The notes beneath the pieces were generated by a model. It worked only from the letters and a program-made list of their open reading frames with translations. It did not search any database and was not told the DNA's origin. DNA of 64,000 nt, from assembly GCF_032854445.1 (NCBI RefSeq), contig NC_088301.1, positions 29,930,402 through 29,994,401 of the forward strand, written 5' to 3'. Position 1 is the stretch's first letter. Every line of letters starts with the position of its first letter. Positions 3,401-63,210 of this stretch are shown here, in pieces. This DNA comes from Liolophura sinensis (lineage: Eukaryota; Mollusca; Polyplacophora; Chitonida; Chitonidae). Position numbers and translations under genes: made by a program.

Positions 3401-6400
3401 CCCGCTGAGCACAGATAGGAATGTCATATAGTAAACTTGTATTATGACGTCCCGCTGAGCACAGATGGGAACGTCATATAATAAACTTGTATTATGACGT
3501 CAGGCTCAGCACAGATGGGAACATCATATAATGAACTTGTACTATGACGTCCGGCTGAGCACGAATGGGAACGTCATATAATGAACTTGAATTTAATAAT
3601 GACGTCCCGCTGAGCACAGATGGGAAGGTCACATAATAAACTTGTACTATGACGTCAGGCTCAGCACAGATGGGAACGTCATATAATAAACTTGTACTAT
3701 GATGTCGGGCTCAGCACAGATGGGAATGTCGTATAATAAACTTGTACTATGACGTCGGGCTCAGCACAGATGGGAACGTCATATAATAAACTTGTACTAT
3801 GACATCGGGCTCAGCACAGATGGGAACGTCATATAATAAACTTGTACTATGACGTCCCGCGGATCACAGATGGGAACGTCATATAATGAACTTGTACTAT
3901 GACGTCGGGCTCAGCACGGATGGGAACGTCATATAATAAACTTGTACTATGACGTCCGACTCAGCACAGATGGGAACGTCATATAATAAACTTGTACTAG
4001 GACGTCGGGCTCAGCACAGATGGGAACGTCATATAATAAACTTGTACTATGACATCGGGCTCAGCACAGATGGGAACGTCATATAATAAACTTGTACTAT
4101 GACGTCCGACTCAGCACAGATGGGAACGTCATATAATAAACTTGTACTATGACGTCCCGCGGAGCACAGATGGGAACGTCATATAATAAACTTGTACTAT
4201 GACGTCGGGCTCAGCACAGATGGGAACGTCATATATTAAACTTGTACTATGACGTCGGGCTCAGCACAGATGGGAACGTCATATAATAAACTTGTATTAT
4301 GACGTCCCGCAGAGCACAGATGGGAACGTCGTATAATAAACTTGTACTATGACGTCCGGCTGAGCACAAATGGGAACGTCATATAATAACCTTGTATTAT
4401 GACGTCCTGCTGAGCACAGATGGGAACGTCATATAATAAACTTGTATTATGACATCCCGCTGAGCACAAATGGGAACGTCACATGTGTACATGTACACAT
4501 GTTGTGTACATGTACATATCAGTGATGTCCATGTACACATCTATAATGTACATGTACAGCAAATTTAGGCCAAGTAACATTTGGATATTGTCACATGATG
4601 GTTTTCATCATTCATAAACAAGTAAGTAATCTGAAAATGAAAATACCTGTACCTGATTAAAACAAGATTTTATAATGTTGAGGACAGTATATGCGAAGTG
4701 ACAGTTCCGGGTTAGTGAATGCTAGGGCACAAATATATATGTTCTGAAACCTAAGCTGGGAAGAATGAAACAGATCTCAAATCATTATAGTCAATGTGAC
4801 ACAGAAATGACAGAAATTTTTAACGTATGACTATGAGTCAGCCGGATGATATGGCATCTAAGCATTACATGTGATATTTACAGTGTGTTTTGCTGCAAAC
4901 GAGCAACCCTTTAAACCTTTTGATCGGTGATTTTTTTACATCCTACATGTATCTTAACTTGGGCTTCTTTAGATTTTATCATATGGGCTGTTCTGTTGAT
5001 TCAAGGGGCCAGAATTGAAAGGACATGATTCACGTCCTGTGTGGAGATGTCTGTTTGTGAATTTGTGCCTGTTGCAAAACTAAAAGGCAGAGGTAATGCA
5101 TATGTGCTCGTATGTCATGCTTGTTTGGTGTTCATATATCTGCACGAACAGTCTGTGACAAAAAACAATAAGTGAGGTATGACTGTACATTTCTGTCTGC
5201 AGGTTGTGATGGAGGAGAGTATGGCCCTGACTGTGGGCAGAGATGTGGATACTGTGCTGAGGGAAGAACAGTCTGTAACAGAACAACAGGAGAATGTCTG
5301 GATAGGTCACCGGATCCTAGATGTCAGGCCGGATACCAGGGAATGAAGTGTGATGAAAGTATGGATAACAGTGGAATAATATTTTAAACATGTCCATTTC
5401 CTTTAAAAATAATGTATAGATGAAAAAAAATAATTGCATCTAAGACTTACTGTAATTGTGACTGGATAAAACATATTATGTAATAATTAAATTGATGAGA
5501 AAGAAATTGCCAAAACAAAGGTCATTTTTTTTTCAGAGTGCACAGCAGGTACTTATGGTGCGGACTGTAAGCAGCCTTGTGGTCAATGTGCAGGTGGCTC
5601 AGATAAGTGTGACAGAGTGGACGGGCGGTGCCCAATCACAGAGACATCAAGATGTGCCCCAGGCTGGAAGGGGAACAAGTGTAAGACAGGTGAGCTAGCC
5701 TAGGCTACACGTGGTAAACCTGAGCTTAAGGAGTTTTTGTCTAGGAGTAATTGTATAAAACCAAGTGCAAATTCTTCTTTTTTATATTCATGTAACGTGC
5801 ATTTGAATTTTTGAATTGTTTTTTATTTCACCAGAATCATAGGGTACATTTTTACATCAGTAGGCATAAAGGTTTGCAAACAAAAACATATTGATAGTTG
5901 TGTCACCAAATGCGTGGCTAAGTACTGACAATTATTTGCTATTTTTTTTCTTGATAAGCAGTGTAAAATATTTTTAGGATTTCTGTAATGCTACTTTATT
6001 AATTAATTCAGATTTATTGGCTGACTTTATGTTGATTTATTTATTTATTTGATTGGTGTTTTACGCCACACTCAAGAATATTTCACTTATACAACGGCGG
6101 TCAGCATTATGGTGGGTGGAAAGTGGGCACGGCCCGGGGGAAACCAATCCGCAGGTTGCTGACAAACCTTCCCACGTACGTCCAGAGAGGAAGCCAGCAT
6201 GAGCTGGACTTGAACTCACAGTGACCGCATTGGTGAGAGACTCCTGGGTCATTACGCTGCGCTAGCGCGCTAACCAACTGAGGACTTTACGTTGAGTAGT
6301 TTGCTATGTTGACACTGATATCAATGGTGGTCAAAACAACAAGAAAATGGCCCTTGTTTGATAAAGATCCCGGCCTGAGGATCAGGATCAGGAAGTTCAC

Positions 6401-9400
6401 GTAAAACACCTGATCATTTACGTGGAGATGCCTAACTAATTCTTCATTTATTAGGTAAAAGTTATCATAAAAACTCAAGAAACTCTGTCCCACCTGGCGA
6501 CCATCCAACTTGTATAAATTATGGTAGGCATTATGTGTACATTGTACATCTACTTTGCTGTCCTCTTTTGCCTCTTAAACTGGCATTTTAATGGCAGTAC
6601 ATGTATAGCTATGTGTAATTTACTTCCTACTTCATATAGTCATCTCCAACTTCCTCTTTGAGCACAAGCATGCAATCAAATTAATTTTCAAAGATATCTC
6701 TTAGTTATGTTTTAAATGGAATGAAAGTAAGATGTTTGTTCTTGTTACTTAGAAAAGAAGGTGGCTGTAGTCACTGTTTGTATTTAATGGAAAACCTACG
6801 GATGGTTGTGGGTTTCCTCCAGGCTCTGCCCGGTTTCCTCCCATCATAATGCTGGTCGCCGTCATATAAGTGAAATATTCTTGAGTACGGACAAAACACC
6901 AATCAAGTAAATAAATTAACATTTAATGGAAACCTCAGCACCGAATGACTTGGGCATGGTATATACATTGTATACATATCGGCCTATATACATGTATGTC
7001 TGTTAAAGCTGAGGTATTTCACACAGTCCTTCACACAATTTTGCTCAGTTGCTTGCCATTAAATTACATGTAATAAAGCTACTTGTACAGTAAATTGTCT
7101 TGCTTAGTAAGAGTGTTGACTGTCAGCAAACCCTTATGTAGTGCCAATTTAACTTGTAACCTTGCCGACATAATAGGCTGTAAATCAGTGGACCAACAAT
7201 AAAAACTTCTGGCATGCCTCATTTTCTTGATGTTTATTCAAATGTATTGTGTCCATGTAATAAAGGTCAAGGTACAAGCTACATACCTGTACATGAACAT
7301 ATCCAGCATGTTCTAAGATGTCGTACAACAAATATATTCTCCGTAAATTTGTATATTGACATATTTACTTTTAAAAACAGGAGAGGTTGATCAGCAGCCT
7401 GGCCAGGGGTAAAGGTTACCCCCAATGCACTGCACATTTTCTGCCACCCATAAACTCAACCCCCATCATATGACCGCACATTTTAGTCAATTAATCTTCT
7501 GTGTGGTGCAAAACACAAATCAGTGAAATATGTAAATTCGTGTATCTTGAGCCGAAATGATAGCAGTCAATTTCAAAACTTTGTCATCCAATTTTAGGAT
7601 TTGTGCAATACAATACACGTAACAAAAAGTGTGAAAGATCTCTGTGACAAGCCACTAGCTCACCATTAGCACACCTGTAGCAGACTTACAGCTTAATTCA
7701 TACAGAAGTGTCCAAGTTGAATGCACTGACCCAATATTAAACTGTTCTCCACTTTTAAAAATCCACTTTTAAAAAATATTCATTACCCATGTACTGGCTA
7801 GTAGACTCCTACATGTTTGTCCCACAACTGTCTATAGAGCTACACTTTTAATCTTTGCTGAGTTTTTAAACATATGTATACATGAATGTATTACGATATT
7901 GTTTCATGTCATAGAGGATATTGCACAGTGAAGGTTCGAATACTATCGATATTTTGAGTGAGGTGAAAATGATAACCCATGAGATGCGAATGGATTATCA
8001 TCACATCCTTTTACTCAAAAAGTATGAATTGTATTCGATCTTCCCTGTGCAATATTCTATTTATTGTTTTGCATATTGACAATATCATGATTTTATGTGT
8101 TTGAACAAGTTTAAGCAGTGTTTGTAGCCATAGGCCTTCACAGGCTTTTTTATAGAAAGTGATGTTGTAGATGACATCTTGTATGACATCTTGTCTTGAT
8201 GTGCCATGCAGGAATAAAAAAGTAATGACTGAACTTGTATTATGACGTCCCGCTGGACACGGATGGGAACATCGTATAATGAACTTGTATTATGACGTCC
8301 CGCTGAGCACAGATGTGAACGTCATATAATGAACTTATATTATGATGTCCCGCTGAGCACAGATAGGAACGTCATATAATAAACTTGTATTATGACGTCC
8401 TGCTGAGCAAAGATGGGAACGTCATATAATAAACTTGTATTATGACATCCCGCTGAGCACAAATGGGAACGTCATCAAAATGCTTCTCTTGATGTCATGA
8501 CATGTCGGTGTATAATATCATGTAATAACAAAAGTGATATCTAACTGAGTGAAATATCGCTTTTATCAGTGAAGGAAAATCTTCAATTTTAAAAATAATG
8601 TAGATAATAAAATAACCATCACAGTGTGATTTTGTGATTTTCAGACTATTTAAAACAACAATTTTCCTCTTAAAAGCGCAGGGAAATACATGATGTATAT
8701 AGTATGTATGTAGTTCTTCAGTCCTGTAATCTTTTTTCTGTAGAATGTGACGATGGCTACTATGGCAGTAACTGTGCTGAAGAGTGTGGAAACTGTGTTG
8801 ATGGTACTGGATCCTGTCACCACACTGATGGCAGCTGTCAGGGTTGTGCCGCTGGCTGGAATGGAACTGTCTGTAAGAAAAGTAAGTAGTGGGTAGTCAT
8901 GGGGCCTGCGATAATGCCAAAAAGTTTCAATTTTGAAACTGGATACTGAAAAACTTGGCTTTAATCTTACTACAACAGCATGGAATCACTGGCCAAAATC
9001 TTATCGATTTCATGCACATATAGATTCATATGCTGTATTTGACCTCCTTCCTCTGCTTGAACCACCTCGTGTTTTCACCTTGTGCTCGCCACAATATGGC
9101 TGAAATATTGCCGATGTGGCGTTAAGTCAAAATCATTCATTCATTCCTTCTATGGCCTTACATGGGAAGGTCTGTCAACAACCTGTGGATGTTCGTGGGT
9201 TTCACCCAGACTCAGCCTGGTTTTTTCCCACCATAATGCTGGCCGCCATCGCATAAGTGAAATATTCTTGAAAACACCAATTCAAGATTCACTCACCTGC
9301 CATATTAGCAGGCTTTTGGTGGCAGCAATAAGTAGACAGCACTTTTTGTGGACTTTTTAAATGGTATGTCATGTTTGTTTGGTGGATATCACCTGTCTTA

Positions 9401-12400
9401 CACCTATAAGAAGTACACAATGAGCAAAGGGTTTATGTAATGTCAGTGTGTTAGTGCAGCATAATGATCCAAGAACCTCTCAACAAGACAGCTGCTGTGA
9501 GTTCAAGTCCAGCTCATGCTGGCTTCCTCTCCGGGCACACGTGGAAAGGTCTGCCAACCTGCAGATGGTCGTGAGTTTCCCCCAGGCTCTTCCAGGTTTT
9601 CTCCTGCCTAAATGCTGGCTGCCATCGTAGAAATGATATATTCTTGAGCACGGCTTAGAACACCAATCAAATAACGAAATAAACAGCATTAATTGTTATA
9701 AGGCACTTTAGCTACGAAAAATGTCACTTGGCTAATGGCATGAATTACTAATTTCTCACAGTTCTTATATGTACACTGTCATGAGACGTTTAAGATACAC
9801 AAAATGTTATGTGGCTAATATCTAACTTCACACAGTTCTTTTAAATGTACATATGTATAGTATAAGTTAATGGTAGCCTGTGGCTCACCCCAGATTATTG
9901 TACAGTGTGACATTGATAGCCTGTGGTTCACCACAGATCATTGTAGAATGTGACATTGGTAGCCTGTTGTTCAGCACAGATCATTGTAGAATGTGACATT
10001 GGTAGCCTGTGGTTCACCACAGATCATTGTAGAATGTGACATTGGTAGCCTGTGGCTCACCACAGATCATTGTAGAATGTGACATTGGTAGCCTGTTGTT
10101 CACCACAGATCATTGTAGAATGTGACATTGGTAGTTCATGGTTCACCACAGATCATTGTAGAATGTGACATTGGTAGCCTGTGGTTCAGCACAGATCATT
10201 GTAGAATGTGACATTGGTAGCCTGTTGTTCAGCACAGATCATTGTAGAATGTGACATTGGTAGCCTGTGGTTCATCACAGATCATTGTAGAATGTGACAT
10301 TGGTAGCCTGTGGTTCAGCACAGATCATTGTAGAATGTGACATTGGTAGCCTGTGATTCACCACAGATCATTGTAGAATGTGACTTTGGTAGCCTGTGGT
10401 TCACCACAGGTCATTGTAGAATGTGACATTGGTAGCCTGTGGTTCAGCACAGATCATTGTAGAATGTGACATTGGTAGCCTGTGGTTCAGCACAGATCAT
10501 TGTAGAATGTGACATTGATAGCCTGTGGTTCAGCACAGATCATTGTAGAATGTGACTTTGGTAGCCTGTCGTTCACCACAGATCATTGTAGAATGTGATA
10601 TCGTTCACCACCAATCATTGTAGAATGTGACATTGGCAGTCCGTGGTTCACCACAGATCATTGTAGAATGTGACATTGGTAGCTTGTCGTTCACCACAGA
10701 TCATTGTAGAATGTGACATTGGTAGCCTATGGTTCAGCACAGATCATTGTAGAATGTGACATTGGTAGCCTGTGATTCACCACAGATCATTGTAGAATGT
10801 GACATTGGTAGCTTGTCGTTCAGCACAGATCATTGTAGAATGTGACATTGGTAGCCTGTGGTTCACCACAGATCATTGTAGAATGTGACATTGGTAGCCT
10901 GTGGCTCACCACAGATCATTGTAGAATGTGACATTGGCAGTCCGTGGCTCACCACAGATCATTGTAGAATGTGACATTGGTAGCCTTTTGTTCAGCACAG
11001 ATCATTGTAGAATTTGACATTGGTAGCCTGTGGTGCACCACAGATCATTGTAGAATGTGACATTGGTAGCCTGTGATTCACCACAGATCATTGTAGAATG
11101 TGACATTGGTAGCCTGTGGTTCACCACAGATCATTGTAGAATGTGATATTGGTAGCCTGTTGTTCACCACAGATCATTGTAGAATGTGACATTGGTAGTC
11201 CATGGTTCACCACAGATCATTGTAGAATGTGACATTGGTAGCCTGTGGTTCACCACAGATCATTGTAGAATGTGACATTGGTAGCCTGTTGTTCACCACA
11301 GATCATTGTAGAATGTGACATTGGTAGCCTGTGGTTCAGCACAGATCATTGTAGAATGTGACATTGGTAGCCTGTGGTTCAGCACAGATCATTGTAGAAT
11401 GTGACATTGGCAGTCCGTGGCTCACCACAGATCATTGTAGAATGTGACATTGGCAGTCCGTGGCTCACCACAGGTCATTGTAGAATGTGACATTGGTAGC
11501 CTGTGGCTCACCACAGATCATTATAGAATGTGACATTGGTAGCCTGTGGTTCAGCACAGATCATTGTAGAATGTGACATTGGTAGCCTGTTGTTAACCAC
11601 AGATCATTGTACAAAGTGGCATTGGTAGCCTGTGGTTGACCACAGATCATTGAAGGATGTGACATTGGTAGCCTGTGGTTCAGCACAGATCATTGTAGTA
11701 TGTGACATTGGTAACCTTTTGTTCAGCACAGATCATTGTAGAATGTGACATTGGTAGTCTATGGTTCAGCACAGATCATTGTAGAATGTGACATTGGTAG
11801 TCCATGGTTCACCACAGATCATTGTAGAATGTGACATTGATAGCCTGCGATTCACCACAGATCATTGTAGAATGTGACATTGGTAGCCTGTGGTTCACCA
11901 CAGACCATTGTAGAATGTGACATTGGTAGCCTGTGGTTCAGCACAGATCATTGTAGAATGTGACATTGGTAACCTGTGGTTCACCACAGATCATTGTAGA
12001 ATGTGACATTGGTAGTCCATGGTTCAGCACAGATCATTGTACAGTGTTACATTGGTAGTCCATGGTTCACCACAGATCATTGTAGAATGTGACACTGGTA
12101 GCCTGTGGTTCAGCACAGATCATTGTAGAATGTGACATTGGTAGCCTGTGGCTCACTTCAGATCATTGTAGAATGTGACATGAATAGCCTGTTGTTCACC
12201 ACAGATCATTGTAGAATGTGACATTGGCAGTCCGTGGCTCACCACAGATCGTTGTAGAATGTGACATTGGTAGCCTGTGGTTCACCACAGATCATTGTAG
12301 AATGTGACATTGGTAGCCTGTGATTCACCACAGATCATTGTAGAATGTGACATTGGTAGCCTGTGGTTCACCACAGATCATTGTAGAATCTGATAGTTAA

Positions 12401-15400
12401 AAAGCATTTTGCTCCATTTGAAAATTTTTTTATAAAGTATGTCAAACTATTTTCCTACTGTTTAAAATCAAATCATTTTATATCTCAAGAATGCGAATTC
12501 ACTAATCTGAAGGTTGTATGTGGATGAAGTCAATCATTGGTCAATCAGTGCTGCACGTGCAGCTGCTAATCTTTCAGCCAGGATGTTTTACCAGATAGAG
12601 TTTGTCAGGTACATGTCATCCAATCTGTGTCAGATATCCACTATTTGTGAGGTAAGCAGAGTTGGTTAGGTACATGTCATCCAATCTGTGTCAGGTATCC
12701 ACTGTTTGAGAGGTAAGCAGAGTTTGTCAGGTACATGTCATCCAGTCTGTGTCAGGTATCCACTGTTTGTGAGGTAAGCAGAGTTTGTCAGGTACATGTC
12801 ATCCAGTCTGTGTCAGATATCCATTGTTTGTGAAGTAGGCAGAGTTGGTTAGGTACATGTCATCCAATCTGTGTCAGGTATCCACTGTTTGTGAAGTAGG
12901 CAGAGTTGGTTAGGTACATGTCATCCAATCTCTGTCAGGTGTCAGGTCTTTGTCAATTATCTGCCAAGTTTTTTGGCTGATACAATATAATAAATAATGA
13001 AATAAGTCCAACATCTTCAGCGTTAATGTATGTGCACCGATGTTGTAAAGGTCATTAAACAATATCAGATTCTGAGTATGTGAAGTGAAGACCAGGAAGA
13101 TAGTAAAATACACAGTAAATACTCATTAGATTAGATAAGATATAAATGTTTTTATATAAATATTCTTATTGTGTAGCATCAAGACACTGTTAAATATTAT
13201 CTTCATAGCTGTACCATCACCTTATCTGGATTTTTCTTTCACAACAGATCTTATCTATATGCCCAGTTTACAGGAAAAGGCGGGGATAGTTGCCTATATC
13301 TGAGGTTACAGTGTTTCATATAGCACCTGCTGAGTGATAGATATATTAAATCTTGTTCTGCAGCTTCATAGCGGTTAAGTTCATGAACCCTGGTTTCCTT
13401 GATGTCTTGATAAACTATTACATAATTAAATGTAGATGTAAGAAAAACAAGGATGGAGATTAAGCCTGCAGAAAAGGCAGCAGACTTTTACTGTAGGACC
13501 TAAGGGCTTATTTGTTCTGTCATCCTAGTGACTTGGCAAGCCAAGATGGCCGCCCTCAAGATCAGATCAGCTGCACAGCCAGCTGTATACACTTGCTTTT
13601 ACTTATGTGTACATTTGATTATTGAAAAAAAGTACATGTAAACATTCAAAAGCTTTAATCCATCATCTTTTCACTAGGCTTGGAGTTCCAATTGTTTTGG
13701 CTTCTTCTTTAAAGTGAGGCATTAAGGCAGATAATTGATGTACATTCTCATTGTGATATCATTGAATTTGTTTTCATCTGTGATATTAAACTGGTTTACT
13801 GTACAGAAGAAATGTTAAGTGATATGTGTACGTGTTTGTTTGTGTATGTCATATGTATGTTCAAACGGTACACTAGGGATGTGGGGAGAGAACTGCCAGT
13901 CTATCTGCAGTCTGCAATGTTTACTGTTTGTTTATGTATGTCATATGTATGTTCAGACTGTACATTAGGGATGTGGGGAGAGAACTGCCAGTCTAACTGC
14001 AGTGTGTACTGTTTGTTTATGTATGTCATATGTATGTTCAGACTGTACACTAGGGACATGGGGAGAGAACTGCCAGTCTAACTGCAGTGTGTACTGTTTG
14101 TTTATGTATGTCATATGTATGTTCAGACTGTACACTAGGGACGTGGGGAGAGAACTGCCAGTCTAACTGCAGTGTGTACTGTTTGTTTATGTATGTCATA
14201 TGTATGTTCAGACTGTAGACTAGGGACATGGGGAGAGAACTGCCAGTCTAACTGCAGTGTGCACTGTTTGTTTATGTATGTCATATGTATGTTCAGACTG
14301 TACACTAGGGACATGGGGAGAGAACTGCCAGTCTAACTGCAGTGTGTACTGTTTGTTAATGTATGTCATATGTATGTTCAGACTGTAGACTAGGGACGTG
14401 GGGAGAGAACTGCCAGTCTAACTGCAGTGTGTACTGTTTGTTTATGTATGTCATATGTATGTTCAGACTGTACACTAGGGACATGGGGAGAGAACTGCCA
14501 GTCTAACTGCAGTGTGTACTGTTTGTTTATGTATGTCATATGTATGTTCAGACTGTAGACTAGGGACATGGGGAGAGAACTGCCAGTCTACCTGCAGTGT
14601 GCACTGTTTGTTTATGTATGTCATATGTATATTCAGACTGTACACTAGGGACATGGGGAGAGAACTGCCAGTCTAACTGCAGTGTGTACTGTTTGTTTAT
14701 GTATGTCGTATGTATGTTCAGACTGTACACAAGGGACATGGGGAGAGAACTGCCAGTCTACCTGCAGTGTGTACTGTTTGTTTATGTATGTCGTATGTAT
14801 GTTCAGACTGTACACTAGGGACATGGGGAGAGAACTGCCAGTCTACCTGCAGTGTATACTGTTTGCAAGGACCGTCATCATGTAACATCGTCAATGGTAC
14901 CTGTTTGGGAGGTTGTAAGGATGGCTACACAGGGGACCGATGTGAACCAGGTATGACAGTTTCACACCACATTATATCTCCAAAACTTTTCCAAATTTGA
15001 TATGAGAGACATGTGATATGTATTTTAAGTGCTTTTATTTTTGTTCTTTTAAATATTACATGTAATTGCCTTGGTTGGGTGGGCCAATTTCTGGTCTATT
15101 GAGCATACAAAAAAAAGCTCTCAGAATATGCTTGAATAAACATCATGCAAACACAAAGGTACAAAATATTACAGCACTGAATGTTATTCACTCAGTGGAC
15201 CTTAAGTTACAAGTTTGGCTTTTTGACACACTGTTTTGCTTTTATTTTGTGATGCTGTGAGACATTAATGTAATGAAATTCTTCAGACTGCTGACCTGTT
15301 CCTTTTCTATGTGGTTTCAGCCAAAGTGATTGGTCCACCAGAATCACAAGTTGGCCTGATTGCTGGAGTGGTCGTTGCTGTGCTGGTCATCATTGTTCTT

Positions 15401-18400
15401 GTTGTTGTACTGTTCATTTTCCTCAGGTAAGTATTCATAGCTGTACTTCTCTTTGACGTTTTGCCTGGCAATCTACTCAATGGGAAATTCATAAAACTAC
15501 CTTCCCACCTGTATCAAGAATTTCTTGTTTTCTTTATTGCCTCACAATAATCGGTGTACGTGTGATCATAAAACATTCATGAAGTACACACGCACTGAAT
15601 GTCACAGAGGAAAATGTTGCATTCTACTGTCATGTGGACCTCCTGTGTAGCTCATCCACGAGTCTCCCACTAACAAATTTTCAAGACAACAAGTCTTCTA
15701 GTTGGTTGGAGCAGAACATTAGGGGAAAATGCCATATGGGCGATAGGAAAGTGACTGATAAGAACGGTATATCATATGGGCAAAATTTTGGAGTGATGAG
15801 AAAAATGGTGATCAGAATGGTTAGAAAATATTTACTTTGCTTAAAAATCTGCTCAAAAGGTCTGGTTGCATTTGTATTGGGATTGGGATGTGATGGTTAC
15901 AGCAGACAAAATAGATCTGCCTACTAGTTTTTGTACAATTATTACTGCTCTAACAGAGAGGACTAGATCACTCCAGGCCATCACGAAGTGTTTTCCAGAC
16001 TTTTTTCTATAACTGAATTGAAACTTGGTAAAACCATGCTTTCACCTATCAGTTGAATTGTAGCTATTGTGGACTGACCATTTCCCAGACATGCTTTCAA
16101 AATGGTTTGTGCACGATATTGATAAGTGTCTGGAACTATAGATATGTGGCTTCAGCATGAGAAGGTACATGTACAGGTTATGATCAAGTGTCCCACAGAT
16201 TTGTGTATGTTCAGTGAAATTACAACGCTTTTGCCCTTTTATGGACTTAACAATTTTATTGGAACTTTTCTTAAAAAAATTGTTTGCTATTCTGAATTGA
16301 AACTTGGTACATGACTTAACTTCAACATGCTAGAGATCAGCTTTGAGCTTTTGACCAAATTATGACCATTTTTAATCTGACAGCTCAAACAGTAAGAGAC
16401 ATGTTTGGCCAAAGCAATACTTTTAGAATGCGCTTTCCTTCAAAAAGGTTACAAGATGTCAATGGGTCTGTGAAGTAAATACTTGCAGCTAATAAGTAAA
16501 TCTGTAATACCCAAGAAATTTATCACTGTAAATGAAATCGTACATTCGTCATTTGACCACTTAGGTGGTCCAATAGTTAGAAAATCCACCTCAAAGTTAC
16601 ACCAAAGAGTTTAAAAATGGTTCTTGTTGTCTGTCTTGGCACTAAGTGCTCAGTGCTAATTTGTTGAAAATGAGCAAATCAATATTTTTGTAAAGTTAAA
16701 ATGCGTCCATGCAGTGTGTCTTTAAGTATGAACTCAGTTTAACAACATTGTTGTCAGACGGAGGAAAAAGAAACCCAGCAATTCTGCTAGGAGTGGTGAT
16801 GAAATGCTAGCCATCGCCACTACCCAGCTGCAGCGCAACTCTCTGAATGATGTCAACACAAAACCGGTGCCAGGTATGTATTTTCTTTTGAGTAGGGCAA
16901 TGACGGGAACGAAAATCAAGTTTACTTGTTTTGATTCGAAAAAATGACATCTTGCATATATGCAACAAGAGTGACATTCCAGTACTTACACAGCTGGGGT
17001 GAATTTACTTTAGCTAAACCTCTGGTCACTGCTATTTACCACAACCTTTGATCATGGTTAATCACAGCCTACTTAATAACCAGAAATTGCTTGCAGCCAC
17101 ACCAAAACTGAACCATAGCCTCTTTCAGGACTGCCATTTATTCGCAGTAGACATGTAATTTTGCATGAAATCAAAGGCCCACAGTGACAAAAATGCCCAT
17201 ATGATTCAAGAACATCATTTGCGATGTACGATAAAGTAAGACTGAATAAGATTAGTTTATCTGTCCACCTGCCTCGCAGTTGCGGGCACTCCCCCAACAT
17301 TTTATTGTGCGATTGCTCCAAGAGTTACAACAGTTACTCATGATTTCTTGCTCTCCAGTTGTGGATAGTGTAGGGGTGACAGGGCCTACTGAGTGCTGGA
17401 CTACTGCCATATGGAGCTTATACCATGACCCACAAAAAAAATCTGTCACCCATCATACTGGTGCTGTGACCAGAATAGCTAGGTTCAAAGAAACATGGAG
17501 CTCTTGGCCTTTGAATTTGGGGTAGTTTTGGGTAAGGGAAGGATTTAAGGTGGGAGGAATGTGACGAGTGCAGCTTTCCATTGCTTTTACTATCCATAGC
17601 TAGGGGGAATGTCACTTCAGCTCAGCTTTATTTCATTGTGGAAATATTAAGCATAGCTTATTTTGTTTCCTATACATGTGGGCCTACATCCATACTTAAA
17701 AGTCAGTAGAGTGATCAATGGACATTGCCTGTGGAGATCCAAGTACAAATACTGGTGTGACCCACAATATGTACATCAGCACATATACATGTAGGTCATC
17801 CAAGTACAAATACTGGTGTGACCCACAATATGTACATCAGCACATATACATGTAGGTCATCCAAGTACAAATACTGGTGTGACCCACAATATGTACATCA
17901 GCACATATACATGTAGGTCATCACCACACGTCTAATGGCATTTTTAGGTGGCAGGCTATGTCAGGTTTTGCACTCATGTAGAGCACAATAACACAAGGGA
18001 GATGTTCCATCGCCGATTCACTGTGTGCTACTAATGTACATACTGTACCAGCTAAGTTCATGACTTAGTGTTTTGTGGATTAGAGTCAATGTTAAACAAA
18101 ATGTCAGGTGTAGTACATGAAAAAGTACTGCATCAGGTTTGGAACTTAGGTTTTGCACACATGTAGAGTACAATAGCACGATGTTCCATCGTTGATTCAC
18201 TGTGTGCATCTAATTACAGTAAAATACCAAATTCATGACTTCAGTACTTTATATGTTAAGCTGAAGTTTTACATTCATGTGCCTTGCTACCAGATGTAAG
18301 TTGCCTTTTGATTTGGAACACAATCAGCTAGAGGTTTTATTTATGTGATGGTAACAATTTGGTCATAGCAGTATTATTAAGGTATGTAATGGTCTCATCA

Positions 18401-21400
18401 TTGAGCTGAATGTTTGAACATGAAATCTGCTTTAAATGTCTGCTCCAGTTTTTTCTATTTTCTTTCTAAAATTAAGTTTATCCCCACAAAAGCCGACGGA
18501 GTAGAAATGATGACCTATGCTGTGTTTCCTTTGTCAGCAAAGAAGCCAGTTCCTGCTGCTGTATCTACCTCTGCTAAAGGGACCACCTCTGCTACAGCGC
18601 CCACCTCTGCTACAGCGCCCACCTCTTCTAAAGCACCCACCTCTGCTACAGTAACCACCTCTCCTACCAGTGACAGCACACCCTCCGAGTACTATAACGT
18701 TGTAGATTTCACCACTGATGGCCCAGCGGTGCTAGTTGATGACCTGTGGGAATATGTCTGTAAGAAGAAAGCTGACGAAGGATTTAAGGCAGAGTTTGAT
18801 GTGAGTAGGAAGATTCTTCTCCTCCAACTCTAATAATTGAATTGTTCATTACTTTCCTACCAGTAATAAATGCAAGTTGATATAACACTTTCATAATCTG
18901 AAACACGAAAACATTTGATTTTTGGGGTATTTTCACTGCTGCATACGCATACACTTATGCTTTAACCTTGGACAAGTGTTCAAACCTGCAAATTGTTTTC
19001 TTTTCATTCAGATATGGTTTTCTAAAAATATAAAGATATCTTATGAATTCTGATCTCTTTTTACATTGTGATGTCAGTACCTTCTGCAAATATTTGTACA
19101 ACTCCATTGTAACTTTATATGGTGCTAGCAGTTCTGTCATCTTTCATGAAACTCGTCTCAGTTTGTCCATTTTTTAACAGTTCTTTTTTCTTCTGCCTCT
19201 ATTCGTTCTCAACAATAATAATGATGTCATAACTAATAATTCTTAACAGTACCTGGTTGTATGCATTAGGACCAATACATTATAGGACTAACACATTATA
19301 GGACTAACACATTATAGGACTAACACATTATAGGACTAACACATTATAGGACTAACACATTCTATGTGGATTCTTGGCCATTTAGTTCTCAGATATACTG
19401 AGAAAAAGTAATCAGTTTATTAAAATGCCTCACAAAGTATAGAGGCATTGGGATGTTTTAATTGAATATTAATAGAAAATATATCTCCATGGGAATTTTT
19501 GTGGAATGTTATTTGATGAAAACAGTTGTCAACCTAATTTTTTTTGTTCACAGAAACTGCTGTCGGGACTACAAGCCAATCATGAAGTATCCAAAATACC
19601 AGAAAATAAACCCAAGAGCCGATATGTCAACATCGTAGCCTGTAAGTACAGACACCCTAGATACAATATTTATTTATTTGATTGGTGTTTTATGCCGTAC
19701 CCAAGAATATTTCACTTATACAACGGCGGCCAGCATTATGGTGGGAGGAAACCGGGCACAGCCCGGGGGAAACCCACAACCATCTGCAGGTTGCTGGCAG
19801 ACCTTCCCACTTACTGGAGAGGAAGCCAGCATGAGCTGGACTTGAACTCACAGCGACCACATTGGTGAGAGACTCCTGGGTCATTACGCTGTGCTAGCGT
19901 GCTAACCAACTGAGCCATGGAGGCCCGTCCCTAGGTACAATAACTCCAATGTATAAGTGAAAAGAGGCCTGTGTGGTAGAAGTGGTTAGCATGCCAGTGC
20001 GGCCCAGTGACCCAGGAGACTCTCACCAATGCGGTTGCTGTTAGTTTAATTCCAGTTCATGCTGGCTTAATTCCCCTCTGACCGTATGTGGGAAAGTCTG
20101 CCAGCAATCTACAGGTGGTTGTGGGTGTCCTACAGGCTTTGCCCGGTTTCCTGCCACTGTAGTGTTGGCCACTGTTGTATAAGTATTCAAGTATTCTTGA
20201 AAATGACATAAAACACAAATCAAATAAATAAATAAATATAAATGAAAACTTTTTCAGTATGGCACTAAACAACAGCCAAACTATGGAACATTTGTTTTGT
20301 TTGTGTTGTACAGATGACCATTCTCGAGTTGTGCTCAGTATACTAGATAATGATCCCAATACCACATACATCAATGCCTGTTACATCCACGTGAGTATCA
20401 GCCCTGCTCTAGTCTTAAACCTTCTTCCAAGCTGAAACTTATGCCAATCCTGTATATGTTAATATGTCCAAACCTGAACTTAAATGTATTTCCATACTTA
20501 TAAAGACTTATGTCAGTCTTCAGTCTTTATGTCACAGCTCAAACGTACATGTATGCCTATGCTCAGTGTTCATACGGTGCATGTTCAAATACAATGTAAG
20601 ATGTGTGTGTCTCGCTCAACTAACTTTAATATGTAATAAGGAGTAGGATATACTGTCAGTTACACGGTTACTCAGGGATAGGATATGGAAATATATGGTG
20701 TCAGTAATTTTCATATGATATGAAGGTTACTGACACCACATGTTTTTGGTATCCTGGCTATCACTGAGTAACAATGAATCCATCAATTCAGTGCACAAGA
20801 CCCATGTGAATCGCTTCAGCAATGTGACCATTGCATTCACAACTAAACAAAGGGAGATAACCTACTCAGCAGATACCTTTGACGTAGTATATATCTGTAT
20901 ATCTTGAGAATATATCTGCACCCCACGTGATCATTGTGATGTGGGATAATTACATAGCTAGGTATTATCGATTTGTGCATAGTAATATCTACGTTCTAAT
21001 CATTTCTTTGTGATATTTTATCTTGATGCTTTCAGGGATATAAACAAGAAAACAAGTACATCGCCTCTCAAGGTATGTCTCTCTTTATTTTATTTTCATA
21101 ATGCAATGAATCATTGAATACACTGTGATTGTGTTTGAAAATTATTGAATACTTCCCTGCTTTTTTCCGTTCAGTTAAAACTTTGATTTAATTAGCTTGC
21201 CACAAGATTGTGTTCATTTATTTTATTGTGGATTTGTAAGATTTGTCATACTTTTTATGTTTGGCTCATAATTTGTGAAAGAAACCTTGGTAAATATTAG
21301 ATTAATCATGTTGGTGCAGGTCATTTTAGCACCAGCGGCTTACTACACCAATAATTTAGTTTAACAACAACTTTATACTGCACCAGCTACTTATTAGTAG

Positions 21401-24400
21401 GGAGTTACTCAGGCAACTTACTAGTAGGGAGTTACTCAGGCAACTTACTAGGAGGGAGATACTGAAACAGACAAATATACATGTACATGTAAAAACACAC
21501 AGACTTTATGCTTTTCCTAGCTTATTTCCATTGAATGATGTAGACTTTGAACTTTCATTGCAGTTGTGGACTGTGCAGATGTCCATGTCCCGACACAATA
21601 TCAAATAAAAACTTGTAAAGAAAAAAATGTCTCTGAAATCAAATATTCTTGATATTGCTTCTCCAGGGTTGCAAAGGTAAGGGAAAAATAATTTTACCAA
21701 ACTGAAACTATGTTTGCAAAATGGAACAGTGGCTGTCAATAGCACTAGCACATGCAGTTACTACAGTGTACACCAGTAAGCAACTAGCAACTCAGCACAC
21801 CAGCAACTTACTATTCCAGCAACTTACTACTCGAGCAACTGACTACACCAGCAGCTTATTATACCAGCAACTTACTACACCAGAAACTTATTATACCAGC
21901 AACTTAGTACACCAGGAACTTATTAGTAACTCACTACACCAACAACTTGCCAGTAACTCACTACCACAGCAACTTACCAGTAACTCACTACACCAGCAAC
22001 TTACCAGCAACTTATTACACCAACAACTTGCCAGTAACTCACTATACCAACAGTATACCATACCAGCACCTTGCTGCATTGTTGTATTTTCAGGACCAAC
22101 TCCGATCATAATAAACGACTTCATGAGAATGATTTGGGAACAGGATTGTGGAAAGATAGTCATGCTGACCAACCTGATGGAGGATATGAAGGTACAGTGC
22201 CATTTAATATAGGATATGAAGGTACAGTGCCATGTAGTATAGGATATGATGTTACAGTTGCATTTAATGTAGGATATGAAAGTATGATTAGATATGATTA
22301 TAGGATACAAAGGTATGTGGTCATTATAGGATATGTAGATATGTAGACAAGGGTGACAGTCCTACAGAAGGGAGACAACTCAGGGAGACAGCACAGTTAA
22401 GCACGTTCTGACGAAAATAATATTAACAAAAAAGACGTCTACTCATGGCACTTTTTAGAACAAGGTTGCAATTGAAAAGTTTTTATAGACCAATTGCCTA
22501 ACTTTGATCACATATATTCATAAGGTATTCATACCATTGTAAAATCAGTGGACCCTAAGGACATTTTTGTTATCACAAATTAATGTAGCAATCAAAATAA
22601 CATTTAGCAAAGAACTTCTGCACCATACAACATAATCACAAAATCTGCACAATATGTCTGAGTTTCTAATTCAAAATAAACTTTGTAAAAATTAACAGTA
22701 AGTAAACAAAAGAACATAATTACGCACAAATAACAAATACCAATTTGGTGACTCATTTGCCACACCTGGCCACAGGATAATCTGCAAAACATCATGTACA
22801 ACGATCACACCCTCAAGCAAAAAAAACGTCATGATCACAAAGTAATTATCCCACCTTCACAATGCAATAGCCCACAATCTCATTCTAATATCCAACAATC
22901 ACGTGTGTTTACTCAACTGCAGTTAACTCCCTTTGTGTGCCTCTGATGTCCACTTGTTAGTAATGTTAACAACTGGATGATGGCTAGCTTCGCTATCAGT
23001 GTACAAATTTTGTGACTTAGTGTACTAGTTGAGCAAGTACCCTGTTTTTACGGTATAATGAAACATAGAGAGCATGTAGGGGATGAGCTATCAGGAATTG
23101 TCAGCTCTCAACAAGTGATATTCCTATCGTGCTAACAATTCCTGATATCCCATTTTTCAGCCTGCATATGTATAATATTCAAGGAGAGTAATGTAGGCTA
23201 TGATATGCTTGATATCATTTAACTCTATGAGGAAATGTGACCAGAGTTGTTGTCTTTGACTGTTTAGGCTTTTGTTGAGGCTCACTGTTAATTAACCTAA
23301 TCTAATTGCTCAATTTCGATCAAACTATGTGTACCATCATTACATGACCACCAAGTCATGGACATTTTAAATGTCAGCAGTTCCGACGCACATCATTTTT
23401 CCTTCCTGATAAATTCCAGTAGTATCATTTAAGGGAATTTTATTCTGATCTATCATTAAAATTAATCAATATCATCAAACATGGAAGGGGATTTGCAGAT
23501 TCTGTAAATTTGATTGCTATACATTACTCTAAATTCACTTCAGTGAAGTTGTTAAGATTTTTTTTCTGATCTACTGACCTAATTATTGTCATTAAATGAC
23601 ATCATTAAGACTATACAAATTCACATCTGATTCATTTAGCTAATTTAAAGTCGTTTATAGGGAGTGAGATTGATCACATACCTCAAATCTTAAGATCTGC
23701 AAGTGTGTAAAGTGTCATGCCATGCATGCAGCACTTTTAGTGACAAATATCCGGAGCATCCCTTGGGGGAAGGGATTTGTATTGTTTACTGAATAAATAG
23801 GGGACAGTTTACTTGGTTAGTCATATGTTGGATTGGTAATTAAACACTGTGTTGAAGAATTTGTAAGCCTGTATCATGACGGAGGAGGCCCACCTGTCAT
23901 ATAGCTGCTGTGAAACCAACAGTACTTATCGTTGGGTTTGAATCTGGGACCACATGTTGTCAAAGGCTAGTACAATTTTGTAGTTGCAGTTTAACTAGAG
24001 TATTATGACAGGTACAGTAAGGATGCGTTTGTATATAGTTTTGGGTTATTTGGCATTCCCAGAATATTTAACTTTTACTGGCAGAGGAAAGTACGCACAG
24101 CTATTAGGGGAAGCCACAAAACCCATCGGATTCTTGACCAACCACCTGGCTTGTTTGGTTTGAACGAGTAGTAGGAAGTTGTTAGTAGGAAGTTACCACA
24201 CCTGGCTTGTCAGTTATATGAATTGTAAAACCAATAGATATATGAAATACAGGTATATAATACAGATGTAGTGTAGCCATGTAGAGTACATGTAGTGGAA
24301 ACCACATGGCTAGTATGAAAACCATTCATACTTTTTGGACAAGCTGGGTTCCTCTGGTCATACCTGGAAAGGTCTCCCAGCAAACTGCAGATGGTCGTGG

Positions 24401-30400: not shown

Positions 30401-33400
30401 CCAACCCTTCGCAATTTGGACAGGATGGCGAAGTGAAAACAGATACTGGGCCAACGAGAACAAAAATGGCATATGGCATGTACGCCAGGCAAAACTACAT
30501 CTTGAAGTCACACAGTATTTTTTACAGATATTACTCTTCGTGTTACTGAGCTGATCTAATCAAACAGATTAAAGGTATACCATGAGTAATGAAGAGACTG
30601 AACAAGGCAAATGTTTGGAACTTTTGGTTTTCTTTACCATGACAACGTGGAGAGTGACAGTTGCTATTCTCAGGCTGCCTTTTAAAATCAGTATTCAGTT
30701 TTGACCAATTTTTCTCAGAAAAGATGTGAAGAGAAAAAAGTAGTTTGAATTACTGTTTAAAGGGAAGTTGGATCTTTTTAAATGAAAATGTTCAGTTTCC
30801 TACCACAAAATTGAGCTTTAAACTTAACCTTACAAACTGAATATCAAGCCGCAAAGTCCTAATATTATTATTGCATTCAGAAGATGCTAGATATATACTC
30901 CTATATAATATTACATTATGTTTTTATATTATTTGGGGATTTTTTTCAAGTGTATAATAAATTATTTTCTCCCCAGGCATTGCAGGAGATGACTGTGCCC
31001 CTGAGAAAGACTGATTTTAAAGCAGCTCTCCACCCTGAAAATAAATCCAAGAACAGAAGTGCCAAGATTTTAGCAGGTGCCATAGTTCTTTAAGCTTTTG
31101 ACACATCAGACAAATCTTGTCTTAAGGCAATGTTGCTGATGTTGTGTGTATCTATGTGTATATAACATTGTAAATAGGAAACATTAAAACGTACTGTTTA
31201 CACAGAAAAATTATTTGGTACAATTGGAAATCTGGCCTAGGGTCAGAAGTCCACCAAAACTTGGTAATTCAAGATGTATCTCTCCCCAGGTAGGCTGCAC
31301 ATACACATCTATTGCCTATAGTAAACCTAGTGTTTGGAAACAACCTTGAGAACAAATTATCAAAAACAGTGTCCAAAATTTGACTACCAGACATGGTGAT
31401 TCTTTATAGAGCTGTTTGGTCGAGCTGAAAATGAATATAAACAGAGATCAACTAAATTTTGTGCATGTATTCTCTTCAATAAGGAAAAAGCCTGTGGAAT
31501 TTTGGCATTAACCCATTTGACAAATTATTGTCAAAACTTATAGACATAAAGATTTCAAAATGAAGCAAATCTCATGAAGAGCTGAGTCAAAAGCTTATAA
31601 AAACTTGTCTCTGCAAAATGCATTTTCGAACACTGTATATTTATATTAACATTTAGTTTAATATTTAATAATTAATATTTCCACTGGTAAATAAAGGGCT
31701 TGAAAACTTTTTAGATGAACAACTGGAGAAGGGTGTATACAGGACAACACTGTTTTGTTACCTTCAACAATCTTTAATACTACAATTTGCCCTTAGCCAA
31801 AAATTTGAGAAATGACATTATAAGTATTACGATAAGTATTATTCTGAAGTCAAAATAAAACATCTTTAAGACACAATCTTACAGAAGAGTTAGGGACAGT
31901 GCTTGAAGTGTTTTCCATAGTATTATAGCTTGTCCAGAACTCCTGTAGGTGAGGCCAGAACTCCTATAGCCGAGGCCAGAACTCCTCCAGGTGAGGCCAG
32001 AACTCCAATAGGTGAGGCCAGAACTCCTATAGGTGAGGCCAGAACTCCTTTAGGTGAGGCCAGAACTCCAATAGGTGAGGCCAGAACTCCAATAGGTGAG
32101 GCCAGAACTCCAATAGGTGAGGCCAGAGCTCCTATAGGTGAGGCCAGAACTCCAATAGGTGAGGCCAGAACTCCAATAGGTGAGGCCAGAACTCCTATAG
32201 GTGAGGCCAGAACTCCTGTAGGTGAGGACAGATTGTTGAACCAGTAAACGTTTTGTGTTACAGCCGATTCTAGCAGACCATTCCTGTCCACTCCAGTCCC
32301 AGGGGGAAGTGATTATATCAATGCCGTCTTCCTGCCTGTGAGTACTTGTAGGACATTTCTGTTCATCTCTGAAGCTCCATTTTAACCCCACCTGTACCAC
32401 TTATGGTGAGATACATGTATTGTGAGATGGGGAAAAGTAAGATATCAATGTTAGGCTTTTCTGGTTAGCTGAGAGGTGTATGGGACAGCGTATTATAGAA
32501 AATAGAAAGGTTATGTTTAAATCACAGATCACGGGCTTGAATTAGGGATAGAATTAACGTACATGTATATGGTAGCATATCATGAAAAGAGGGAATAGCA
32601 ATTGGGTGATCTATGCTCTCTTGGTCCATGGGCCAGTTTGTTCAATTTGCTTATATCTTGAAAATAACTGGAGGAGAATCATGTAAGTAAGAGGTTGTAC
32701 TGGGTATGGGAGGCTTCAGGACTGATCAAGTATGGAGACCAGCTTGATTTGCATACTAAGGGTGGCATATTCAGTAAATTTCGTTAAACCTATTGGTTAT
32801 TGGTTTCTGTCGTCTGAATATTATCCGATTTTTAGAAAGTTGTATGTGCAGGATAGTTTTGTGTAACCTCAGACTAATGTTAAAAACCAGCTTGACCTGT
32901 ACATAAGAGATTGCATTTAACATTTCCTTGACTCCCATAGGTTGTGAGTCACGTTTTGTGTAGGTTGAAGATTAGTTTTTATATATAAGAATCATGTAAA
33001 TGGAAGCTTCATTAAGTATATGAGCCCTCATACAGGATTCGAAAATCAGTTGTTTCATATTTAATGATCTGGGTGATTTCATCATTTCATTGGTTGTTAA
33101 TATTTTGTATTGATGTTGTTGTTGTTGTGCCCCTCAGATCTGCTCTGATAAAAAAAAAACACCCAGAGGTATGCATAATTTTTACACATTAAACAGTTTC
33201 CCTTGTTCTGATTAGTGGTTGCATTCCATGCTGTCTGTGTGTATAACTGCTCCAAATATTGTTTGATTTGATAAAATCTTATGTGCAGTTTTACTTTGCT
33301 GAAGGTTTGCATATTTAGTGGCTTTCTTCATTCTTAGTACACGATTCTCGTTTCCCTGCTTCTCAAAATATTGTCTGAGATTAACAAAAGTTTTCCTTTT

Positions 33401-51502: not shown

Positions 51503-51575
51503 TTAAACAGATTTGATCTTAGGGAAGAAGAAAGGTGACAAATCTTCGAAAGAAACCTTCCAGAAAATGGTATCT
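51503..51575 (-). pseudogene. Displaced C-terminal tail of the cGAS-like gene
   Basis: Immediately past the stop of the main frame, a shifted frame reads LIDTIFWKV and later LSPFFFPKI, ending at TAA (51503-51505). The aromatic-Pro ending resembles the usual Mab-21 C-terminal HYFIP-like motif. No intron is needed. A one-base change near 51577-51582 would explain it. Confidence 0.45.
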
Positions 51576-52575
51576 ATAAGGAGATAAAACGTTCGGCAAG
51601 TTTATCGTCAGTCCACTGGTAATTATTAGGATGGGTTAGGGTTTCGTGAAGAAGCAACATCTTCAGATGGTAAGATGTCAAGAGTATCGTCATGTCAGCA
51701 CTGGGAACGCCCCGACTCGTCGTTACCAAATGATGTAATCGGAGTGCTTTGAAGATAATTAGACACTCTTTGTGACACAGTCTTAATTCTGGCCCATCTG
51801 CATCGATGGTTTTCACAAGTAAAGTTTCTGCCCTCGACACAGAAAGGCGCCACAAGAGTCCTACATCAGGGCCAGTGTCTCCAATTCCAGGAGTTGATTC
51901 ATTTACGTATTTGGCTACCAACTCGTAACCGTTTGCTTTTATCCTTGAAATGGCTTCTGCGCTTGGCCATCGCTTGTCATATCCATCCTGAGGGATGTCT
52001 GGATTCGCTGAGGAAGGCCAACCAACGCATTTTACAGCCAACACCAGATCGGCTTTGTATTTGAAACCCTTTTCCTTCGTTGATACAGTGGTTGCCACTG
52101 TGCCTTGTCCGCCAACACAGTAACTCCCGTGCAAGTGGCCTCTCATGCTCGATACAACCTCGTCCACATGACGCTGAAACAAATCGGTGATTTTTCGGGG
52201 GTTTAAATACCCACCGGTCCTGACATCACTCCATGTCCGAGCGCTCGATGCTGTCAGTTTGAACTTAGCGTAGCCAGGGGAAAGGGCAGACTCCTCATCC
52301 GAACCAGGAATGTCTACGCAGAGCAAAATGTCAAATTCACAGGCTACGACGGCCGAAAGGCCAGAAGCCACACTGCCAACATCGTGAACTTCACAATGAA
52401 ATCTCGCATCTTTTTCTCTCACGCGGCTGAGGATTTTCTTAACCACTGTTCTGAGCTCATCTTGCTTCGGTTCAGGCTTGGGTTTGGCAAAGTTTTTGTA
52501 AAACTCCACAAGAAGTGGTTGAAGTTCCGCTCTGTAGCGGCCATCAAATCTTGACTGGGATGTATTATTAAACAT
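51574..52575 (-). CDS. cGAS-like / Mab-21 domain nucleotidyltransferase (cGLR-like)
   Basis: 333 residues in one exon. The nucleotidyltransferase signature is visible: GS at residues 67-68, then Glu80-Phe-Asp82 (ACEFDILLCV), with a likely third acidic residue at Asp176 (KADLVLAV). Later come WRLSVSRAETLL (242-253) and the helical Mab-21 C-terminal block SYHLKMLLLHE (301-311) and W321. No H-CC-C zinc thumb like that of vertebrate cGAS is apparent. Family members with these residues make cyclic dinucleotide-type signals on sensing nucleic acid or other ligands; here activity is inference. The protein stops at FISL, about 25-30 residues short of the usual C-terminus. A matching tail lies in another frame just downstream (51575-51503), suggesting a frameshift or sequence error. 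The start is the first Met of the open frame. Confidence 0.85.
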   Translation of the reverse strand: MFNNTSQSRFDGRYRAELQPLLVEFYKNFAKPKPEPKQDELRTVVKKILSRVREKDARFHCEVHDVGSVASGLSAVVACEFDILLCVDIPGSDEESALSPGYAKFKLTASSARTWSDVRTGGYLNPRKITDLFQRHVDEVVSSMRGHLHGSYCVGGQGTVATTVSTKEKGFKYKADLVLAVKCVGWPSSANPDIPQDGYDKRWPSAEAISRIKANGYELVAKYVNESTPGIGDTGPDVGLLWRLSVSRAETLLVKTIDADGPELRLCHKECLIIFKALRLHHLVTTSRGVPSADMTILLTSYHLKMLLLHETLTHPNNYQWTDDKLAERFISL

Positions 52576-53212
52576 GGTGATGGGCCACTTAACAGGTTGT
52601 CGCTCAATTCACTTCACAAAACAGGGACGCAAGACCACAACATGGTAGCGTGTCAACGAGACTGGGGCTGGCTGCAGTGACGTTGAGAACTTTCCCAGCT
52701 GTACACTATAATGAATCGGCGACAAACAAAGCCTCACTATGGTCAGTGTGGTGCAGAAGAAATTAATGAGCATACGCTGATTATCATTTGGCCAACTGAG
52801 TAACACCGGCGTTATGCACAAGTGGCCGGTATGTCAGAAAGCAGGGTTGAGCATAGAGGACTGGGGATAATTCCAAACCAAGCATCATATGAGAGCAGAC
52901 TCCGGTGATCCGCATGTATACTCACAGCATACACGATATACATTTAGCTGGCCTATAGCTCTGCCGCTACATACACCTATATATGACGCATTCAGCTGTT
53001 TAAAGTTGCAACTATATGGCCACCGATGCATGAAGATGTCGCACGAAGTGTACATAGATGTATGTATATAGCCGGCGCAATCACCATATACCGTATTTCT
53101 TCTAACAATTAATCAAGGATATTGTTGTTGGATGTGAAAACAATTATAAGGTTGAATGAGGAGGCTTTATAATGTTACAGGATACATGAAAAGAAACTAT
53201 TAAACAAAGATC

Positions 53213-63118: not shown

Positions 63119-63210
63119 GTCGGGGACAGGAGATGGAAGGTCAGAATGTGATGCAAAGAATGCACAGAAAGCATTGGCCTTATCAATATCACTGGATACA
63201 TTTTTACCAT

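What the first reader, a model, noticed from the sequence alone, without database searches (positions are those of the whole stretch)
13830..14950. Minisatellite built from half an EGF exon and its splice acceptor
About twelve 85-bp units each contain the acceptor and first half of EGF exon 6, and only the last is joined to the rest of the exon. A dozen near-identical 3' splice sites in a row before one exon is unusual. It could impair or tune inclusion of the membrane-proximal module, or act as a decoy acceptor bank. Most upstream choices would read into a TAA, so a splicing error would truncate the receptor.
Basis: partly seen in the sequence, partly recalled or inferred. Interest (0 to 1): 0.75.

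Follow-up and report, generated by a model that had tools for sequence, protein, structure and literature searches.

The report
Splice-site minisatellite in a chiton receptor
In a chiton gene for an EGF-bearing receptor phosphatase, the start of one exon and its splice site are repeated about a dozen times in a row in the preceding intron; this looks like a known by-product of runaway tandem duplication (a "mirage", so far described from lancelets), and similar arrays turned up in unrelated genes of the same animal.

Summary
The array is real. Twelve copies of the first 59 bases of an EGF-like exon lie head to tail; eleven keep the AG acceptor at an 85-bp period, the most upstream has lost it, and only the last joins the rest of the exon. 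The genome is the chiton Liolophura japonica, by scaffold lengths. The gene is an EGF-like receptor tyrosine phosphatase.

All 10 intact upstream acceptors, read through to this exon's donor, meet a stop: 6 TAA, 4 TAG. Chance predicts much the same.

The anatomy has a name: "mirage" minisatellites of amphioxus Adh3, troponin C, globin and PGBD5 genes, reported not to disturb splicing. Nor is it unique here: of 66 other distinct exons surveyed, I count 5 (phosphatase, myosin, kinesin genes) that repeat an exon edge on the same strand; opposite-strand control 0. A decayed donor-side case lies in the same gene.

Most likely a passive mirage with the exon-proximal acceptor used. A "decoy bank" or "tuning" role is untested and less likely. 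The news is that mirages recur in a mollusc genome.

The parts
13833..14865 (+). Mirage-type minisatellite: 12 copies of the exon start (59 bp), 11 with intact AG plus 26 bp of intron end; TRF reports 13912-14865
13833..13923 (+). Most upstream copy: acceptor lost (AA), first Cys codon lost, 92 bp from the next copy
13955..14721 (+). Ten intact upstream (decoy) AG acceptors, last intron bases 13956, 14041, 14126, 14211, 14296, 14381, 14466, 14551, 14636, 14721; each reads into a stop
14805..14806 (+). Acceptor AG of the complete exon; the only one that leaves the frame open
14807..14950 (+). Complete membrane-proximal EGF-like exon (144 nt, phase 1-1), donor CAG|GTATGA
   Evidence: Pfam EGF_laminin below its cut-off
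8744..8881 (+). Preceding EGF-like exon (138 nt, phase 1-1), donor GTAAGT
15321..15426 (+). Following transmembrane exon
22181..22345 (+). Decaying donor-side mirage of 30-bp units at the end of a phosphatase-domain exon (real donor taken as ATGAAG|GTACAG, GT at 22192)

Best explanation
A mirage-type minisatellite. A tandem duplication with one breakpoint some 26-32 nt upstream of the exon and the other about 59 nt inside it copied the intron end, the acceptor and the first 41% of the exon; repeated unequal exchange or slippage multiplied it. Because the extra copies lie on the intron side, the last copy stays joined to the intact rest of the exon, so the protein is kept as long as the exon-proximal acceptor is used. 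I infer that it is: the donor at 14951 pairs with the nearest competent acceptor (exon definition, 144 nt); longer choices give exons of 229-994 nt with premature stops. Shown: array, geometry, frames, recurrence in other genes. Inferred: the duplication mechanism, the acceptor actually used, exon definition, selective neutrality.
For: Anatomy. The intron before the first unit and the exon at the break share TGTTTG, a possible microhomology. Only 14806 gives an open frame. Same anatomy in unrelated genes here: phosphatase L022 (8 acceptors, 66-67 bp apart), kinesin L083 (12 copies 63-66 bp apart, 9 with AG), myosin L069 (donor, 7 exact copies at 66 bp), myosin L077 (donor, 32-bp units); the copy joined to the exon is always the one at the array's exon end. 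Decoys decay as if unused: in L022 6 of 7 decoys have His where the exon has Arg, and Arg stands there in all 17 phosphatase loci in which the motif pattern was found; in L083 5 of 11 upstream copies break an Ile-Asn pair present in all 6 of 11 kinesin loci that show the motif, with a pattern that did not demand the pair. [quoted passage not shown] None of 11 homologous EGF exon loci has an array over the exon.
Against: No RNA evidence from this gene. The real acceptor is no stronger than its decoys: 9 of 16 pyrimidines at -20..-5, the same as the decoy tested, against 13 of 16 for exon 5. 8 of 11 units carry a branch-like CTAAC that the last two units lack, so decoys could compete well. Classic duplicated-site experiments (recalled, not looked up) often favour the intron-proximal copy. 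The microhomology is only 6 bp.
Confidence: 0.8

Rival explanations
1. Regulatory acceptor bank: decoy acceptors compete with the real one, so that part of the transcripts carry a premature stop and are degraded; array length sets the dose of receptor.
For: Ten intact decoys nearly identical to the real site; all lead to stops 68-872 nt before the exon's donor; real site weak; branch-like CTAAC in 8 of 11 units.
Against: Stops are expected by chance on reading into intron-derived sequence; sister arrays show decayed decoys; amphioxus mirages do not disturb splicing; arrays of this kind occur in unrelated genes.
Confidence: 0.1
2. The array has crippled the exon: most transcripts skip it and join exon 5 to the transmembrane exon, dropping the membrane-proximal EGF-like module.
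For: Exon symmetrical, skipping keeps the frame; weak acceptor.
Against: The exon keeps an open frame, its cysteine pattern and a fair donor; amphioxus precedent.
Confidence: 0.07
3. Single units act as in-frame cassette exons: acceptor to the second inner GTATGT is 75 nt, adding 25 residues of half an EGF module.
For: In most units such a site lies 75 nt behind the acceptor.
Against: Inner donors lack the G at -1 (TAT|GTATGT); consecutive units would leave an intron of 10 nt; the last two units before the exon have lost this spacing (71 nt).
Confidence: 0.01
4. Assembly artefact or collapsed haplotypes.
For: Tandem arrays are error-prone.
Against: PacBio HiFi assembly with mean read length 8.3 kb, far longer than the array, though at 14x only; units differ from one another; similar arrays at independent loci.
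Confidence: 0.02

Closest known systems
Mirage minisatellite of amphioxus globin gene BflGb6 (PMC3087553; abstract and passages seen)
   Same: Tandem copies of the 3' end of an intron plus the 5' part of the next exon; many but not all copies keep AG; boundary units escape homogenisation; copies could serve as cryptic splice sites.
   Different: Units 150-160 bp, 6 and 3 in two haplotypes, in a lancelet globin gene; here 85 bp, 12 copies, a chiton receptor phosphatase. Splicing there was checked by RT-PCR, here not.
Mirages of amphioxus Adh3, troponin C and PGBD5 (as described in passages of PMC3087553 and PMC3902484; the original Adh3 paper is not held)
   Same: Repeats across exon-intron boundaries, donor or acceptor side; splicing reported or presumed undisturbed; Adh3 unit sizes given as 10-72 bp.
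   Different: Cephalochordates only; somatic instability known at Adh3, not testable here.
Intron gain by tandem duplication of AG/GT proto-splice sites (Rogers model, as cited in PMC3087553)
   Same: Tandem duplication makes extra splice sites that could become new introns.
   Different: No new intron is evident here.
CeRep25B intronic minisatellite of C. elegans (PMC4039745; passages seen)
   Same: Intronic minisatellite near alternative splicing decisions.
   Different: Described there as a palindromic repeat with splicing-regulatory motifs, not as a copy of an exon boundary.

Membership tests
mirage minisatellites | tandem repeats whose unit spans an exon-intron boundary | tested here: met
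   26 bp intron + 59 bp exon per unit; the boundary itself is inferred from sequence, not from cDNA
mirage minisatellites | minisatellite-size unit (reported 10-160 bp) | tested here: met
   85 bp; reported sizes
mirage minisatellites | many, not all, copies keep the AG/GT signal | tested here: met
   11 of 12 keep AG
mirage minisatellites | inner units homogenised, boundary unit diverged | tested here: met
   11 units 96.4% identical, first unit diverged; the unit at the exon end is not clearly diverged
mirage minisatellites | regular splicing undisturbed | not testable with these tools
   no RNA data
mirage minisatellites | length instability between haplotypes or somatic cells | not testable with these tools
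   one locus only in the assembly
mirage minisatellites | found in cephalochordates (all described cases that I saw) | tested here: not met
   chiton; a taxon is not a structural criterion, so I still file it here
regulated alternative 3' splice sites | more than one acceptor used in mRNA | not testable with these tools
   no RNA data

The most novel reading that the evidence does not exclude
Mirages are a pervasive, independently evolved feature of this chiton genome: several per cent of internal exons carry a tandem bank of their own donor or acceptor, tolerated only because splice-site choice is exon-proximal, so the genome holds many natural tests of exon definition and a standing supply of proto-introns; copy-number change could then shift the splicing of particular receptors between individuals.
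Probability: 0.45. Interest if true: 0.75.

Novelty: new member of a known kind. Interest (0 to 1): 0.55.

Why it matters
Mirages were proposed as a source of new introns but, in the papers I could find, only in lancelets. Finding them repeatedly in a mollusc suggests that they follow from heavy minisatellite formation, not from something special to lancelets. Each array is a natural experiment: up to 11 nearly identical acceptors before one exon ask directly whether splice-site choice follows exon definition or proximity along the intron.

Tried and rejected
Near duplicate of the gene as comparator: phosphatase exons recur about 133 kb downstream, but in the 17.5 kb fetched there the similarity begins at window ~21800, inside a minisatellite, and the EGF-like exon is not in it. 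Homologous EGF exon loci L004-L014 (49-58% identical, many of them near-copies of one another) show no array over the exon.

Array as a transposon piece: not supported; the unit was found at one locus only.

Coding constraint on the index decoys: 8 variable exon positions among 11 units, by my own reading 5 non-synonymous and 3 synonymous; uninformative.

Other window arrays as mirages: 31934-32232 and 42953-44775 lie near exons but showed no exon sequence by eye; of 18 exon cores tested against 2.5 kb of flank only E6 and E11 gave strong same-strand hits, E1 and E5 weak ones (E 0.043 and 0.024). These cores are approximate and I did not map every exon of the gene. Arrays close behind the exon in L023, L061, L071 and on the donor side of L075 showed no exon sequence by eye.

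Survey rows dropped: of 82 exon loci, 15 as near-copies. Of the 7 non-index exons that passed the edge test, L013 (neighbouring EGF-like modules) and L046 (68% identity; the intron end matches better than the exon) were not counted; counting L046 would make 6 of 66. L075 is a two-copy case, found with gaps but missed by a substitution-only scan. L077 rests on a short exon part (8-9 bp) repeated exactly. Exons come from few genes and were picked by profile score, so they are neither random nor independent. TRF arrays cross exon edges less often than under random placement (3 against 16.9 +- 3.1), so mirages look like the tolerated remainder, not an enrichment.

Motif controls: the first kinesin pattern demanded the Asn, so I repeated it without that demand (same 6 of 11 loci, all Ile-Asn). 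The phosphatase pattern allowed Arg, His, Lys or Gln only; 17 loci matched (L022 among them, several overlapping or near-copies), two further hits (L038 and a second one in L042) were not phosphatase-like and were dropped, and loci without a hit (such as L033, L040) say nothing.

The transmembrane exon was first entered one base early; corrected.

Full report
What is there. The window lies at G000:C7:29930402-29994401. Contigs C1 (96,433,062 bp), C7 (60,359,117), C8 (58,388,612), C9 (37,343,639), C12 (31,077,156), C3 (27,489,247) and C5 (19,479,325) have exactly the lengths of scaffolds of the chiton Liolophura japonica, and 632 scaffolds match too (PMC11068029, passages seen). C6, C13 and the total are a few kilobases shorter than published, as withheld stretches would explain. 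The mitochondrial order ND3-ND2-COX1-COX2-ATP6, read under code 5 (genes named by recall), fits a mollusc. The gene on the + strand has EGF-like exons, a transmembrane exon (15321-15426) and two phosphatase domains. The EGF-like modules are recognised by cysteine pattern; their Pfam scores stay below the curated cut-offs.

The array. Twelve copies of the first 59 bases of exon 14807-14950, eleven with the 26-base intron end and an intact AG, end in the complete exon. The intact units are 96.4% identical on average; 3 of 26 intron and 8 of 59 exon positions vary. The most upstream copy has lost AG and lies 92 bp from the next. The unit was found nowhere else in the assembly.

Reading frames. 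With exon 5 joined to each acceptor and the exon read through to 14950, 14806 alone is open; the 10 intact upstream acceptors give 6 TAA and 4 TAG, 68 to 872 nt before the exon's donor. The unit length is not a multiple of three. With equal codon use a frame meets a stop in about 74% of 28-codon stretches (my arithmetic), so this needs no selection. Skipping the exon keeps the frame.

Splice signals. The 32 bases before the real acceptor differ from the commonest decoy at one place. Its pyrimidine content is 9 of 16, against 13 of 16 for exon 5. The exon part holds CTAAC, a branch-like motif (recalled), in 8 of 11 units; the last two units and the unit at 14551 have CTACC. Local sequence therefore does not single out the last site; its position next to the rest of the exon does.

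Recurrence. Exon loci from five searches (EGF peptide, STING, phosphatase, myosin, kinesin) gave 82 loci and 67 distinct exons, one of them the index. Each exon with 40 bases on either side was compared with its own flanks. At E <= 1e-3 with the match running past the exon edge, 7 of 66 non-index exons matched on the same strand and 0 of 67 on the opposite strand. In the earlier, looser run over 56 exons there were 58 same-strand hits and 1 opposite-strand hit, index included. I count 5 of 66: L022 (phosphatase, acceptor, 8 copies), L083 (kinesin, acceptor, 12 copies, 9 with AG), L069 (myosin, donor, 7 exact copies), L077 (myosin, donor, 32-bp units) and L075 (myosin, acceptor, two copies). 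L013 and L046 passed the test but were not counted (see Tried and rejected). In the index gene 18 approximate exon cores were tested the same way; besides the index only E11 passed clearly: a donor-side array of 30-bp units, decaying, also present in the partial gene copy about 133 kb away.

Are decoys used? In L022 six of seven decoys have His where the exon has Arg; all 17 phosphatase loci in which the pattern was found have Arg (the pattern allowed Arg, His, Lys, Gln). All seven L022 decoys run into a stop after 12 residues. In L083 five of eleven upstream copies break the Ile-Asn pair that all six kinesin loci with the motif keep. That is what unused copies look like. It is indirect for the index array, whose decoys show nothing so clear.

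How common by chance. TRF arrays (period >= 10, score >= 100) cover 9% of the first survey loci, 12% of the myosin loci and 25% of the window. Placed at random, 68 arrays in 66 loci would cross an exon edge 16.9 +- 3.1 times; 3 do. Mirages thus look like the tolerated edge of a busy minisatellite process that selection keeps out of exons.

What is known. PMC3087553 (abstract and passages) describes mirages in amphioxus globin genes, one with this very anatomy (intron 3' end plus exon 5' part), cites Adh3, says that Adh3 data and their RT-PCR suggest no interference with splicing, and proposes intron gain from them. PMC3902484 (passages) adds PGBD5 and cites troponin C. In the rows listed by my searches for such repeats I saw none outside lancelets (of these searches listed 15 of 102 and 15 of 20 papers). 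Most subscription papers are not held, so this does not show that none is in print.

Verdict. The best account is a passive mirage with exon-proximal splicing. The wider point is its recurrence in a chiton genome.

Noticed in passing
window 9871-12393 and 8739: The 43-bp array in the intron after exon 5 holds 49 exact copies of a 13-base word that spans exon 5's own acceptor; the word's only other occurrence in the window is that acceptor. Possibly an old mirage of a lost exon copy, possibly chance.
   Followed up: partly
window ~300-800 and ~5200-5700: Two EGF-like exons are present twice, about 4.9 kb apart, nearly identical: a recent internal duplication adding two modules.
   Followed up: no
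window ~21800 and L051 (C7:~30085000): A partial second copy of the receptor gene about 133 kb downstream begins inside a 16-bp-unit minisatellite; 92% identical over 1.46 kb of what was fetched.
   Followed up: partly
window 31934-32232: A 21-bp array with 13 copies of AGGTGAG, a donor-like word, ends about 30 bp before an apparent acceptor.
   Followed up: no
L023, L024, L061, L069, L071, L075, L077, L078, L079, L087: In 10 of 66 survey loci a minisatellite starts within 150 bp of the donor-side end of the exon match, against 4 of 66 on the acceptor side.
   Followed up: no
L046 (upstream of the exon): A copy of the acceptor region about 0.4 kb upstream matches well over the intron end and poorly over the exon: perhaps a decayed mirage.
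   Followed up: partly
window 18567-18667: An 18-bp minisatellite inside an open frame that looks like the juxtamembrane exon, encoding Ala-Pro-Thr-Ser repeats.
   Followed up: no
G000:C99: COX1 recurs about every 15.5 kb along this 109-kb contig: mitochondrial units assembled in tandem.
   Followed up: no
window 51574-52608 (-) and 61127-63241 (-): A Mab-21 nucleotidyltransferase-like open frame and a reverse-transcriptase open frame.
   Followed up: no
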